64,000 bases of DNA, taken from positions 124,001 to 188,000 of the forward strand of contig NZ_JALJCL010000005.1 in assembly GCF_023698535.1 (NCBI RefSeq), given 5' to 3'. This DNA is from Halorientalis regularis (lineage in GTDB: Archaea > Halobacteriota > Halobacteria > Halobacteriales > Haloarculaceae). The notes beneath the pieces are model-generated. The model searched no databases and was not told where the DNA came from. It was given only the letters and a program-made list of their open reading frames with translations. Made by a program: the position numbers and the translations under genes. Shown piece by piece: positions 30,494 to 38,676 of the stretch (position 1 is the stretch's first letter; the number at the start of each line of letters is the position of its first letter).

Positions 30494-30820
30494 TCACTGC
30501 TCGACCGGTTCGGCCCCGGGGTCGTCGGGGTCGACGGACTCGACCGCCACCGCGGCCCCCTCGTCACGGCCGCCCCGGCGTCGGTACATCGCACGGGCCG
30601 CCACCGCGGCGGCCACGACGGCCACGACACCGATCACGCGTCGGCCGCGGGACGGCGAGGAGTGCTCCATCTCGCCCTCGGCCATCGCCACGTCCTCGCC
30701 CTTGATCATGCGCTCGGGGTCGGTGACGACTACGTCGTCCACGTCCTCCCCAGGGGCCGGAATGCCGATGGTCGCGCCGTCGAAGTGTAGCTCGAACAGA
30801 GTTACGTCGTCGAATGCCAT
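30494..30820 (-). CDS. Haloarchaeal protein with one membrane span
   Basis: 108 residues: a soluble acidic N-terminal 45 (VTLFELHFDGATIGIPAPGE), one membrane helix (RRVIGVVAVVAAAVAARAMY) followed by a basic stop (RRRGGRDE) and an acidic end. Function unknown. The TnpB insertion sequence begins about 45 bases upstream of its start codon, so the IS may sit in its promoter region. Confidence 0.65.
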   Translation of the reverse strand: MAFDDVTLFELHFDGATIGIPAPGEDVDDVVVTDPERMIKGEDVAMAEGEMEHSSPSRGRRVIGVVAVVAAAVAARAMYRRRGGRDEGAAVAVESVDPDDPGAEPVEQ

Positions 30821-30865
30821 ACCACCAGTAGGTCGGCCAGCGACTTACAGTAGTAGTGATACGTG

Positions 30866-30990
30866 ATGACGTCCTCCCCGGCGTGAACGCCGGGGTTTCC
30901 CAGGCGTTGGGATATTATGGTTCGCGGCACACCTGTTCTTGTGGGGCAACTCGCCCCGTGGATTTCTCGAACAGGCGCACCGCTGGCTGT
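30866..30990 (-). ncRNA. Candidate omega/reRNA of the TnpB element
   Basis: In IS200/IS605 elements the guide RNA is made from the 3' end of tnpB and the right end, and its guide segment comes from the flanking DNA past the element. Here the right-end hairpin CCCCGGCGT-GA-ACGCCGGGG (30876-30895) would be the last scaffold stem, and the guide would be read on the minus strand from about 30865 downward. Limits are approximate and no expression evidence exists. Confidence 0.35.
30876..30895. repeat. IS right-end hairpin
   Basis: CCCCGGCGT - GA - ACGCCGGGG, perfect 9-bp arms; the core is identical to the left-end hairpin. Confidence 0.8.
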
Positions 30991-32168
30991 GCCATCCAGC
31001 CGTTATCCCTATCTCCCCCATCACAGGCGAGAGTCGGGAGTACCTTCTGTCGGATGTTTTCAGCCCCGTTCACGTCGGCATTGGCGACCAGTCCACACTC
31101 CTCACAGACGTACAGCCCACGTTCAACACGTTGGCTGTCCTCGGTCGTTCCACAGGATGCGCAAGACTTGGACGTGTCACGCTCATCCACACGCTCGACG
31201 CTGATACCGTGTTCAGCGGCTTTGTATTCCAGCATCTCGGTGAACCTGTCGAACGCCCACCCATGCAAGTCGAGGTTGCCGTGGTCGCCCCAGTCGGCGT
31301 CCTCGCGGATACCAGTCAAGTCGCCTGCGGCAATTTTCCCGACGTTACGAGCGGCGCACTCGGCTACTATATCCTTCGAGACGGCGTGGAAGAAGTGCGT
31401 CCGGCGCTCGTCGCGCTTCCGGTCCAGTCGCCGTGCCTTCTGTGAGTCACTATCGTCGCACTTCGCTCGCTCTTTCAGGAAGTAGTACTCATCCTCTTTG
31501 AGTGCGCCGCCGGGATACAGCAGAGCATCGTCGCCAACCGCAACAGCGGCGAAATTGCAGATACCGAGGTCGATACCTGCCACCCGGTCGCCCGGTGGGT
31601 CAGGGTCGCCGATCTCGACGTTGCACACGATGTGCAACTCCCACTCGGTATCAGTCCAGACTGCTCGGACCTGTTGGACGTTCTTGATGGCCACATCTGG
31701 GTCAGCAGCATATTCACAGAGAATGAAGTCCTGCCGTCCGTCTTTCAGATTCCGTCCCTTCGAGAGTCGAATCTGATTATGTTCGAGGTCGTGCTCGAAC
31801 CCATCTTCTTTGAACGTGACTGTCGAGCGTGGATGCTCGTCGCCATGTTTGCGGTAGCCGGGTGGGTTCGCCTTCTCGTCACCGTTCCCACGGAGCGTGT
31901 ACCACGAGTCGAACGCTTCAGCCAATTCTTCGAGAATTTCCTGACTGGATTGTGCGTTCAAATCCGCGTAGCGTTCGTGATTCTTGAGGTACGCTTTGAG
32001 AACGCCGTCGTCTGGTATCGTACCGGTTTCATCCCAAATCCGGTCACACGTCCATCGAGCGACGTTCCAGAGTTTCGAGGCAGCGAACCCGAGCGAATCG
32101 AGGTCTGCACGCACCTGCTGGTGGTTGCGAATGGATGCAACGTAGGTGCGAGTGACCTGATCCGCCAT
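30915..32168 (-). CDS. tnpB: RNA-guided nuclease TnpB (IS605 OrfB family)
   Basis: 417-residue TnpB, the RuvC-like ancestor of Cas12, which uses a transposon-end RNA to cut DNA next to its TAM. RuvC-I Asp200 is in VAGIDLGICNF and RuvC-III Asp365 in VANADVNGAENI. The zinc finger is CASCG (336/339) with CEECG (355/358). At RuvC-II, where most TnpBs have a Glu before Asp-Leu, this protein reads IAAGDLTGIRED, with Gly282 at that place and Glu289 seven residues on. The length and both ends look intact, so the gene is not obviously decayed. No tnpA is present. Confidence 0.9.
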   Translation of the reverse strand: MADQVTRTYVASIRNHQQVRADLDSLGFAASKLWNVARWTCDRIWDETGTIPDDGVLKAYLKNHERYADLNAQSSQEILEELAEAFDSWYTLRGNGDEKANPPGYRKHGDEHPRSTVTFKEDGFEHDLEHNQIRLSKGRNLKDGRQDFILCEYAADPDVAIKNVQQVRAVWTDTEWELHIVCNVEIGDPDPPGDRVAGIDLGICNFAAVAVGDDALLYPGGALKEDEYYFLKERAKCDDSDSQKARRLDRKRDERRTHFFHAVSKDIVAECAARNVGKIAAGDLTGIREDADWGDHGNLDLHGWAFDRFTEMLEYKAAEHGISVERVDERDTSKSCASCGTTEDSQRVERGLYVCEECGLVANADVNGAENIRQKVLPTLACDGGDRDNGWMAQPAVRLFEKSTGRVAPQEQVCREP

Positions 32169-32285
32169 ACATAGCCTGTTGTGTGTGAAATTGATAAGTA
32201 GTGGCCAACCGGGGTGAAAGTGAACATAGAATATCCAGCCCGTCTGTCACCCGGTGGCGTCGTATCAAAGCTTACGCGATTCACG

Positions 32286-32303
32286 CCCGGCGTGAACGCC
32301 GGG
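32286..32303. repeat. IS left-end hairpin
   Basis: CCCGGCGTGAACGCCGGG, identical in core to the right-end hairpin; lies 13 bases inside the TTGAT junction. Confidence 0.8.
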
Positions 32304-32316
32304 ATTCTCTCGCTGT

Positions 32317-32321
32317 ATCAA
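32317..32321 (-). other. Insertion target/TAM motif TTGAT
   Basis: TTGAT on the minus strand immediately precedes the predicted left end (ACAGCGAGAGAATC). The same pentamer is the target and TAM of the well-studied ISDra2 element. Confidence 0.55.
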
Positions 32322-32326
32322 GATAG

Positions 32327-32680
32327 CTAGCGGATTCCGCGAGCCAGCGCGCCCAGCAGACTCCCGACGAGCGGGATGGCGGTGCTGACCGCGAAGACTT
32401 GTCCCATGCCGAGGAAGAGTCCCAGGTTGCCCGTGCCTGCGAGCCAGAGAGCGAAGACGAGCCACGAGAGGATACCGAAGCCGAGGCCAGCGAGCAGGCC
32501 ACGGCCCAGCGAGGGCTGGGTGAGCGCGACGAGCGCCCCGCCGAGGACGAACCCCAGCCAGTGGACCGGGACGATCGCCAGTCCGACGACGACGGCTCCC
32601 ACGGCCGCGAGCCGGCGGTGGCGCGGGTCCGCCCGGAGCGCGTCGAGGCGGCCACCGAGTGTCCCGGACTGTTCGCTCAT
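32327..32680 (-). CDS. Haloarchaeal small membrane protein
   Basis: 117 residues with about four membrane helices (AAVGAVVVGLAIVPVHWLGF, LVALTQPSLGRGLLAGLGFG, LVFALWLAGTGNLGLFLGMG, VSTAIPLVGSLLGALARG). Function unknown. Its ATG overlaps the stop of the penicillin-acylase-type gene by four bases, so they are cotranscribed. The TnpB element lies six bases after its stop and did not disrupt it. Confidence 0.7.
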   Translation of the reverse strand: MSEQSGTLGGRLDALRADPRHRRLAAVGAVVVGLAIVPVHWLGFVLGGALVALTQPSLGRGLLAGLGFGILSWLVFALWLAGTGNLGLFLGMGQVFAVSTAIPLVGSLLGALARGIR

Positions 32681-35124
32681 CGCTCGCCCTCCTCGAACCG
32701 CACGGCGATCTCGCCGTTGGTCCCGAGCGGGATCGGCTTGTACTCGCCGTCGGCCCAGGCGCGCAACTGGTCGTGGTAGTGATCCGAGAAGACCGAGCCG
32801 TCGTTGCCGCCGGGGAAGGCACCCTCGGAGGTGGCCGCCGATTTGTCCATCGGGCAGATCATCCGCCAGCTACTCCCGAACTGCTCCTCTCTGTGGAAGT
32901 TGTTCAGTGTCGCGCCCGAGCCGTCGGTCGCGTACCGTGGATAGTTCAGCCACGACCGGTCGAACGGGTGGTCGATGGCCGTGACGTTGTAGTCGCCGTA
33001 GGTCTCCCAGCCCTGCTTGTCGAACTGGACGGCCGTCGTCGACAGCGCCTGCCTGATCGCTTCCGGCCGGCCGTCCGAGAACCACGCCGAATCGGGCGGC
33101 AACTGTATCAGCGACCAGTCGGTGCCGTAGTACGCCGACACGTTCCGGCGCTCACCGAGTGCCTGTTCCAGCCTGTCGCCGAACACGACGTGTCGGTAGC
33201 TCTGCATGAACTTCTCGAAGATCAGTGCGCCACGAGCGTCACGGCTCATGCGGTAGTCCCAGTCGTCGAGTTCGTCGAGCAGCGCGCGTGCGTCGCTCCC
33301 GCTCCGGAGATCATCGCGGACATCGAGCATGACGGGGACGAACTGCTCGGCCCGTTTGTCGTACACGTCTCGCTGGAGACGCCGCATGAACGCCGGGTCG
33401 GCGGCCTCGTCGCTGGCCACACGTTCGTCGAGGCGTTCCCACAGGCGCAGCCCGCGGAACGGTGTCGAGTAGGGCTTCTCGAAGTAGTACGGATAGTCGT
33501 CGTCCCGCGGGAGGACGCGCTGGTTGGCGGTCCCGAGATACTCGGGCTGGTCGACGTGGGGCATCTCCTCGAAGGCGATGAACCCGTCGCCGTCCCACTC
33601 CGTCTCCCCGTACGGCGTGTAGCCGGCCCACTCCCCCTCGCGGGCGGAGCCGTCGAACACCCGGTCGCCCCGGACCGCCTCGCCGGCGGTCCGTCGGATC
33701 GGCACTTTCCCGACCACTCGGTAGTGGGTGTTGCCGTCGCGGTCGGCGTAGACGAAGTTCTGTGTCGGCAGGTCGAACTTCCGAACCGCGGACAGGGCGT
33801 CATCCAGCCCCTCGCTCCGGTTCAACTCGGAGACGGCCGCCGTGGTTCGCGTGGCACCGAGTCCCGTCCACGCGACGGCCACCTCGGTTCGGAACTCGTC
33901 GCCGTCGCTCTCGACGCCCAGCATCGGCCCGTGGACCGTCTTGCGGACCGTCACCGTCCGGTCGTCGCCGTCGGCGACCGCGATGGTTCGTTGCTCGGTC
34001 TCGAAGTCGCGCCACTCCTCGCCGTAGCGGTACTGCCCGTCGCGGGTGTCGTACTCGTAGAAGTCGATGACGTCGGTCCCGGTGTTGGTGAATCCCCACG
34101 CTCCGGCGTCGTTTTCGCCGATGACGACGAAGGGGACGCCCGGGAAGGTCACGCCCCGAACGTCTGTCTCCGGGCCTGTGAGGTGCATCTCGTACCAGAC
34201 CGGCGGTGCCATCAGGGAGAGGTGCGGGTCGTTGGCCAGTAGCGGCGACCCCGAGGCCGTGTGTTCGCCCGAAACGACCCAGGAGTTCGACCCGATCCCC
34301 CGCGGCGACTCGAAGGCACCGAGCCAGTCGACGAGGTCGGGGTCGACCGCGGTCGCCGACCGGGACGCATCAGTCCCACCTGCCCCGGACTCGGCCGTGG
34401 TCCACCCGGTGTCGGCCGAGAACGACTGGTCGCGCAGAATGGCCGCCTCGTGGTCCATCTGCGTGGGAAACAGCGTCTCGGCGACGTCCGGCCCGAGCGC
34501 CGCGGTGACAGTCGCCTCGCGGAGCGTCCGGAAGCGCCCGGTGAGCGTCCAGCCGATCTGTTTCTCGGCGAGCATGGCGTCGGCCGGCGTCCAGGGCTCC
34601 GGCTCGAAGCCCAGCAGGTCGTACTCTATCGGGAGCGGTCGGTCGCTGTCGACGTGGCGATTGACGCCCTCGGTGTACGCCGTGACGAGGTCGCCCGTCT
34701 CGGTGCCTTCGACCCGCTGCCATGACGCCTCGGCCGCGCCAGCGAAATCCATCAGGACGTGAAAGCGGTCGGACGCCAGCGTCGCGTCGCCGACGACCGC
34801 CGACAGTTCGCCGCGCATCTGCCGGCGCTGGAGGTCCATCTGAAAGAGGCGGTCGACCCCCTGCACGTACCCGACTGCGAAGTACAGCGCCCGTTCGTCG
34901 TCGGCCGACACGTGGGGCACGCCGTGATCGTCGTAGCGCACCGTCGCCGCGCCGTACGGGCTCTCGACGGTCTCGGGGAGGTCGTCGCCGGCGGTGTCCC
35001 AGAGGTCGCCGCCGAACGGCGCGAACCGGTCGAGATAGCGCCGGATCGGCGTCCCGGCGGCACCGACGACCCCGCCCGCCAGCAGCGCGCCCAGCACGGC
35101 GCGACGGGTTCGTTCGCGATCCAT
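32677..35124 (-). CDS. Penicillin acylase (Ntn-hydrolase) family protein with Tat-like signal
   Basis: 815-residue amidase precursor. The start RTRRAVLGALLAGGVVGAAG fits a twin-arginine signal (RRxxLG plus hydrophobic core), the main export route in haloarchaea, so the enzyme probably acts outside the cell. Autocatalytic cleavage before Ser279 (GIG-SNSWVVSG) would free the N-terminal nucleophile of the beta chain. Further family blocks: NDPHLSLMAPPVWYEM, GVTFPGVPFVVIGEND, GNTHYRVVGKVPIR, and near the C terminus LNNFHREEQFGSSWRMI. Relatives cleave penicillins, cephalosporins, cyclic lipopeptides or acyl-homoserine lactones; the substrate here is unknown. Confidence 0.88.
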   Translation of the reverse strand: MDRERTRRAVLGALLAGGVVGAAGTPIRRYLDRFAPFGGDLWDTAGDDLPETVESPYGAATVRYDDHGVPHVSADDERALYFAVGYVQGVDRLFQMDLQRRQMRGELSAVVGDATLASDRFHVLMDFAGAAEASWQRVEGTETGDLVTAYTEGVNRHVDSDRPLPIEYDLLGFEPEPWTPADAMLAEKQIGWTLTGRFRTLREATVTAALGPDVAETLFPTQMDHEAAILRDQSFSADTGWTTAESGAGGTDASRSATAVDPDLVDWLGAFESPRGIGSNSWVVSGEHTASGSPLLANDPHLSLMAPPVWYEMHLTGPETDVRGVTFPGVPFVVIGENDAGAWGFTNTGTDVIDFYEYDTRDGQYRYGEEWRDFETEQRTIAVADGDDRTVTVRKTVHGPMLGVESDGDEFRTEVAVAWTGLGATRTTAAVSELNRSEGLDDALSAVRKFDLPTQNFVYADRDGNTHYRVVGKVPIRRTAGEAVRGDRVFDGSAREGEWAGYTPYGETEWDGDGFIAFEEMPHVDQPEYLGTANQRVLPRDDDYPYYFEKPYSTPFRGLRLWERLDERVASDEAADPAFMRRLQRDVYDKRAEQFVPVMLDVRDDLRSGSDARALLDELDDWDYRMSRDARGALIFEKFMQSYRHVVFGDRLEQALGERRNVSAYYGTDWSLIQLPPDSAWFSDGRPEAIRQALSTTAVQFDKQGWETYGDYNVTAIDHPFDRSWLNYPRYATDGSGATLNNFHREEQFGSSWRMICPMDKSAATSEGAFPGGNDGSVFSDHYHDQLRAWADGEYKPIPLGTNGEIAVRFEEGER

Positions 35125-36000: not shown

Positions 36001-38676
<2,676 letters not shown>

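What the first reader, a model, noticed from the sequence alone, without database searches (positions are those of the whole stretch)
30866..32321. Apparently intact TnpB-only element with TTGAT junction, twin hairpins and a predictable guide
Seen: full-length tnpB, the same CCCGGCGT..ACGCCGGG hairpin at both ends, and TTGAT abutting the left end. Known: ISDra2-like TnpB uses TTGAT as insertion site and TAM, and its RNA guide comes from DNA past the right end. Inference: the RNA starting in the tnpB 3' end would take its guide from about 30845-30865 (minus strand) and could cut the empty site, which would explain retention without tnpA.
Basis: partly seen in the sequence, partly recalled or inferred. 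Interest (0 to 1): 0.6.

Follow-up and report, generated by a model that had tools for sequence, protein, structure and literature searches.

The report
Haloarchaeal TnpB-only transposon, boundaries corrected

Summary
The element is an IS200/IS605 (IS1341-type) TnpB-only insertion in a Halorientalis-like haloarchaeon. Its 3' end matches the known haloarchaeal omega-RNA family Rfam RF02656 (sot0042) above threshold. The ISDra2-like reading fails. Empty sites in sister genomes at 11 insertion loci, including this one, show that TTGAT is inside the element. The target left in the empty site is CTAT (YTAY), and the element runs from 30866 to 32322. Conserved tips and Watson-Crick covariation between the right tip base and its upstream guide base (61 of 64) match the IS608 system (TTAC/TCAA), not ISDra2. 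The right boundary and predicted guide (30845-30865) stand; the expected TAM becomes CTAT. The RuvC-II glutamate is replaced by glycine throughout this clade. A glutamate appears at position 329 in exactly those proteins that lack it (136/136 versus 0/34), so a relocated, working active site is more likely than a dead one. dN/dS is 0.11-0.19. Retention by cutting the empty site remains plausible but is inferred, and is already proposed for the family. Ordinary element; informative correction.

The parts
30866..32322 (-). Whole TnpB-only IS200/IS605 (IS1341-type) element, 1457 bp, left tip C-TTGAT..., right tip ...GTCAT
   Evidence: Tips conserved over 83 left ends and 58 right ends; empty sites in sister genomes
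32323..32326 (-). Target / left cleavage site CTAT, kept in the flank; predicted TAM
   Evidence: Present in the empty sites, directly joined to the right flank; CTAT in 60 of 83 insertions. TAM role is inferred
32317..32321 (-). TTGAT: internal left-end sequence, not the target
   Evidence: Absent from all empty sites; its GAT is less conserved than the bases on either side
32305..32309 (-). Left guide segment (GL-like) next to the left hairpin; last base A at 32305 matches last target base T
   Evidence: A with T in 75 of 79 left ends, G with C in 4 of 4 once a one-nt shift is allowed
32286..32303 (-). Left-end subterminal hairpin CCCGGCGTTCACGCCGGG
30915..32168 (-). tnpB, 417 aa, RuvC residues D200, (G282 instead of Glu), E329, D365
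   Evidence: TnpB/Cas12f fold; dN/dS 0.11-0.19
30875..31045 (-). Omega-RNA scaffold, Rfam RF02656 (sot0042), overlapping the tnpB 3' end
   Evidence: 116.7 bits, gathering score 88
30896..30899 (-). Right guide GAAA (GR-like), last base A pairs with tip base T at 30866
   Evidence: Watson-Crick covariation 61 of 64
30877..30894 (-). Right-end subterminal hairpin, also the last omega-RNA hairpin
   Evidence: compensatory changes, 90% paired versus 70% in shuffles
30866..30869 (-). Right cleavage site TCAT (right tip; end of the omega-RNA scaffold)
30845..30865 (-). Predicted guide CACGTATCACTACTACTGTAA from the right flank
   Evidence: Position follows from the boundary and the omega-RNA model; the only exact copy of its first 16 nt in the genome is this site

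Best explanation
An intact, TnpA-less element of the haloarchaeal IS200/IS605 family. It inserts 3' of a YTAY tetranucleotide (here CTAT) and ends in TCAT. It was probably mobilised in trans by a Y1 transposase of related tnpA+tnpB elements that carry the same ends, working as in IS608: single-stranded excision and insertion, with cleavage sites chosen by pairing to guide tetranucleotides beside the subterminal hairpins. Its transcript yields an omega-RNA (RF02656) whose scaffold ends at 30866 and whose guide is read from the right flank. TnpB, with its catalytic glutamate moved from RuvC-II (position 282) to the end of the next strand (E329), most likely cuts the CTAT-marked empty allele (CTAT|CACGTATCACTACTAC), so that repair restores the element. 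Shown by comparison: boundaries, target, RNA family, glutamate exchange, purifying selection. Inferred: trans mobilisation, TAM identity, cleavage and retention.
For: Empty sites with CTAT/YTAY joined directly to the right flank at 11 insertion loci, among them this one in G003, with a supporting partial site in G005. Tip and target profiles over 83 left and 58 right ends. Covariation of the right tip base with its guide base, T:A, C:G, A:T in 61 of 64, the A class being the IS608 GAAT/TCAA pair (IS608 values from PMC5934647). Elements with tnpA and the same left-end motif: L205, L225, L229, L231, L079, L080. Rfam RF02656 at 116.7 bits; H. salinarum expresses such RNAs (PMC12558985). Glutamate exchange 282/329 in 170 of 170 proteins. 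dN/dS 0.11-0.19. Fold matches TnpB and Cas12f.
Against: No RNA or cleavage data for this element. No tnpA with these ends was found in this genome, so it may now be immobile. Purifying selection does not say which activity is kept. Empty sites come from other species, not sister strains; for the window locus itself only two diverged genomes support the joint.
Confidence: 0.8

Rival explanations
1. ISDra2-like element as proposed: TTGAT is the insertion site and TAM and lies outside the element.
For: TTGAT sits near the left end and is the commonest pentamer there; ISDra2 uses TTGAT (PMC8612924).
Against: Absent from every empty site; the bases upstream of it are as conserved or more; copies with TTCTA, TTTAA, CTTAA keep the same upstream target and right tip.
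Confidence: 0.03
2. Nuclease-dead TnpB: loss of the RuvC-II glutamate made it an RNA-guided DNA binder or regulator, or a relic.
For: Canonical Glu is Gly or Ser in the whole clade; Cas12m2 with a non-canonical triad binds without cutting (PMC10442227), and dead TnpB homologues acting as regulators are known (own knowledge).
Against: D200 and D365 are kept; Glu at 329 appears in exactly the proteins that lack Glu 282; the family stays a mobile element at many different sites rather than a fixed locus.
Confidence: 0.2
3. Decaying passenger: an immobile, unexpressed leftover whose tnpB merely has not yet broken.
For: No tnpA with these ends in this genome; fragments and single-end remnants of related copies are present.
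Against: dN/dS 0.11-0.19 against eight relatives, 0.19 for the nearest; complete ends, hairpins and omega-RNA.
Confidence: 0.15

Closest known systems
Haloarchaeal IS1341-type (tnpB-only) IS200/IS605 elements and PATEs, e.g. ISHwa17-19, ISHwa21-29, ISNph5-22 (PMC3119063)
   Same: tnpB without tnpA, near-terminal palindromes, no target duplication, 4-5 nt target kept, 52-bp end-only derivatives
   Different: This copy is intact and was not compared with those individual elements; its exact target (CTAT) and tips are derived here
sot / omega-RNAs of Halobacterium salinarum (Rfam RF02656; PMC12558985)
   Same: Same RNA family over the tnpB 3' end, with terminal hairpin and flank-derived guide
   Different: Expression not tested in this organism
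IS608 of Helicobacter pylori (CL TTAC, CR TCAA, GL AAAG, GR GAAT; PMC5934647)
   Same: YTAY target, TCAN tip, guide base next to each hairpin covarying with the cleavage site; sister lineages have exactly GAAT with TCAA
   Different: No own tnpA; target here CTAT and tip TCAT
ISDra2 of Deinococcus radiodurans (TTGAT target and TAM; PMC8612924)
   Same: TnpB with an RNA from the right end; model in which the TAM equals the TnpA target
   Different: TTGAT is inside the present element; the RuvC-II Glu of canonical TnpB is Gly here, with Glu at 329 instead

Membership tests
IS200/IS605, IS1341-type (tnpB-only) | tnpB of the family and no tnpA | tested here: met
   of 80 related loci with up to 4-kb flanks only two hold a tnpA at all, both about 2 kb or more from the gene
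IS200/IS605, IS1341-type (tnpB-only) | Subterminal hairpins at both ends, no target duplication | tested here: met
IS200/IS605, IS1341-type (tnpB-only) | Insertion 3' of a short fixed target kept in the left flank | tested here: met
   CTAT in empty and filled sites
ISDra2-like subgroup | Target and TAM TTGAT outside the left tip | tested here: not met
   TTGAT missing from all empty sites
IS608-like cleavage-site recognition | Cleavage-site bases pair with guide bases 5' of each hairpin | tested here: met
   Right end 61 of 64 Watson-Crick for the last base; left end A-T 75 of 79 and G-C 4 of 4 after a one-nt shift; the other guide positions hardly vary and say little
Rfam RF02656 sot0042 omega-RNA | Covariance-model score above gathering threshold | tested here: met
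   116.7 versus 88 bits, full model 1-174
TnpB RNA-guided nuclease | RuvC D-E-D catalytic triad | tested here: inconclusive
   D200 and D365 present, RuvC-II Glu replaced by Gly; E329 a probable substitute
TnpB RNA-guided nuclease | TAM-dependent, guide-dependent DNA cleavage | not testable with these tools
   Needs biochemistry

The most novel reading that the evidence does not exclude
A large haloarchaeal TnpB lineage is an active RNA-guided nuclease with its second catalytic acid moved from the RuvC-II strand (E282) to the end of the next strand (E329), recognising a CTAT/YTAY TAM, and tnpB-only copies of it persist by cutting their own empty sites while borrowing the transposase of elements that encode a canonical TnpB.
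Probability: 0.5. Interest if true: 0.45.

Novelty: new member of a known kind. Interest (0 to 1): 0.3.

Why it matters
It corrects a tempting misassignment: a TAM guessed by likeness to ISDra2 would probably make a cleavage assay or reprogramming of this TnpB fail. The comparison gives the exact target, tip, guide start and a testable position for the displaced catalytic glutamate in a very common but biochemically little-studied haloarchaeal TnpB group.

Tried and rejected
TTGAT as target/TAM: rejected by empty sites. A first reading with the boundary at CTA|TCTTGAT and ...GTCA| was one base off; the lineage-specific fifth tip base T/C/A and the joins fixed it. An apparent frame-restoring join at L228 that seemed to favour TTGAT was dropped, because its relatives hold about 180 bp of other sequence at that site instead of an empty allele. 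D307 as the displaced catalytic acid: invariant among 45 close relatives but not across the wider set. The paper on rearranged TnpB catalytic sites that I remember (Altae-Tran et al. 2023, PNAS) and the original sot paper (Gomes-Filho 2015) were not held. 17 right ends whose guide segment is out of register were left out of the pairing count.

Full report
Setting. The window is G000:C41:124001-188000 of a 4.03-Mb haloarchaeal genome. G001 in its genus has the same match coordinates and contig length as Halorientalis marina GDY88, and the nearest named relative of the protein is from Halorientalis pallida, 94% identical, so the host is Halorientalis-like. The element sits between two genes on the same strand: it starts just after the stop codon of a small gene (32327-32680) and ends upstream of a hypothetical gene (30494-30820).

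Observation. tnpB (30915-32168, minus, 417 aa) is uninterrupted and matches OrfB_IS605, Cas12f1-like_TNB and NCBIfam guided_TnpB. The hairpin is identical at both ends and unique in the window; four strand-matches against 0.04 expected. TTGAT is at 32317-32321 on the minus strand.

Boundaries. A left-end motif CAGCGAGAGAATCCC is present in 79 of 146 family genomes and its reversed control in none. Aligning independent insertions shows that conservation starts upstream of TTGAT, at CTAT, and that GAT within TTGAT is among the weakest parts of the block. Right ends share GGAGGATGTCA plus one lineage-specific base: T in the window lineage, C in others, A in the Halorubrum-type lineage. I joined the flanks of 21 and then 17 insertions and searched 146 family genomes for empty sites. 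With the element taken as C-TTGAT...GTCAT (or GTCAC) and CTAT left outside, the empty alleles align without gaps at the joint for L216, L229, L198, L047, L088 and L204. They do so for L203, L102 and L103 after a one-nt shift where the left end is one base shorter. For L033 only the right side aligns. At the window locus G003 reads GCTAT|CATGTATCACTAC and G005 reads GCTAT|CACGTATCA, against GCTAT|CACGTATCACTAC for the joined window flanks; G003 keeps both neighbouring genes, while G005 supports only the right flank and five bases on the left. TTGAT is in none of them. That makes eleven insertion sites, covering window-type, tnpA-bearing and end-only elements.

Mechanism of movement. In IS608 the cleavage sites TTAC and TCAA are read by guide tetranucleotides AAAG and GAAT next to the hairpins (PMC5934647). 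Here the base just before the right hairpin covaries with the right tip base, T with A (24), A with T (21), G with C (16), 3 exceptions, where the guide is in register. The window has GAAA and TCAT. At the left end GAGAA goes with targets ending in T and GAGAG with targets ending in C. This independently supports the same boundaries. Elements with the same left-end motif that carry tnpA and another type of tnpB exist (L205, L225, L229, L231, L079, L080); those whose RuvC-II was aligned have the canonical EDL (L205, L225, L229), and L231 lies in the same genus. No tnpA directly next to tnpB was found in 80 related loci, and none of the five Y1 genes of this genome has these left ends; representatives are 27-35% identical to the TnpA of the matching elements. 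Mobilisation in trans is therefore likely but inferred.

Guide RNA. Rfam RF02656 (sot0042) matches 30875-31045 over its full length at 116.7 bits, threshold 88. The last hairpin varies with compensation (90% paired, shuffles 70%). H. salinarum has ten such RNAs, with a pseudoknot to a transposon-encoded motif, a right-end hairpin and a predicted guide (PMC12558985). The first 16 nt occur exactly only at this site in the genome, as expected if the empty allele is absent.

Nuclease. The RuvC-II glutamate of solved relatives aligns with G282. In 44 of 45 relatives the residue is Gly. Over 170 proteins from the loci fetched by then, all 136 with Gly or Ser at 282 have Glu at 329, and all 34 with Glu at 282 have Pro, Ser or Ala at 329. 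In the predicted fold, which matches TnpB and Cas12f structures, strands end at 200, 283 and 328. D200, position 282 and position 329 thus lie at the ends of strands that are neighbours and parallel in an RNase H fold (secondary structure; geometry from general knowledge, not measured). The simplest reading is a moved catalytic acid. I recall that rearranged TnpB catalytic sites have been published, but could not read that paper here, so I do not claim this as new. tnpB is under purifying selection (dN/dS 0.11-0.19).

Verdict. An ordinary, intact tnpB-only element.

Noticed in passing
L021 801-848 (G000:C7): End-only mini-element of about 48 bp in the same genome: left end fused to right end through the shared hairpin (PATE-like); a similar short L216 and a longer L227 exist in other genomes, L216 with an exact empty site in G061.
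   Followed up: partly
L205 (G082:C2:383500-386860): A tnpA+tnpB element of this family carries a 100-bp tandem duplication of its own left end.
   Followed up: no
L007 1501-1594 (G000:C9:64783-64876): A right end 84% identical to the window element for which the search showed no matching tnpB body: remnant or non-coding derivative.
   Followed up: no
RuvC positions 282/329 in 170 TnpB proteins of the fetched loci: Perfect reciprocal exchange of a glutamate between RuvC-II and the end of the next strand across haloarchaeal TnpBs, including one next to tnpA in this genome (L023).
   Followed up: partly
window 36001-38676: Leucyl-tRNA synthetase that scores far better with the bacterial equivalog model (826 bits) than with the archaeal one (250 bits).
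   Followed up: no
window 32677-35124: Penicillin-amidase family protein (815 aa, Pfam 631 bits) beside the element.
   Followed up: no
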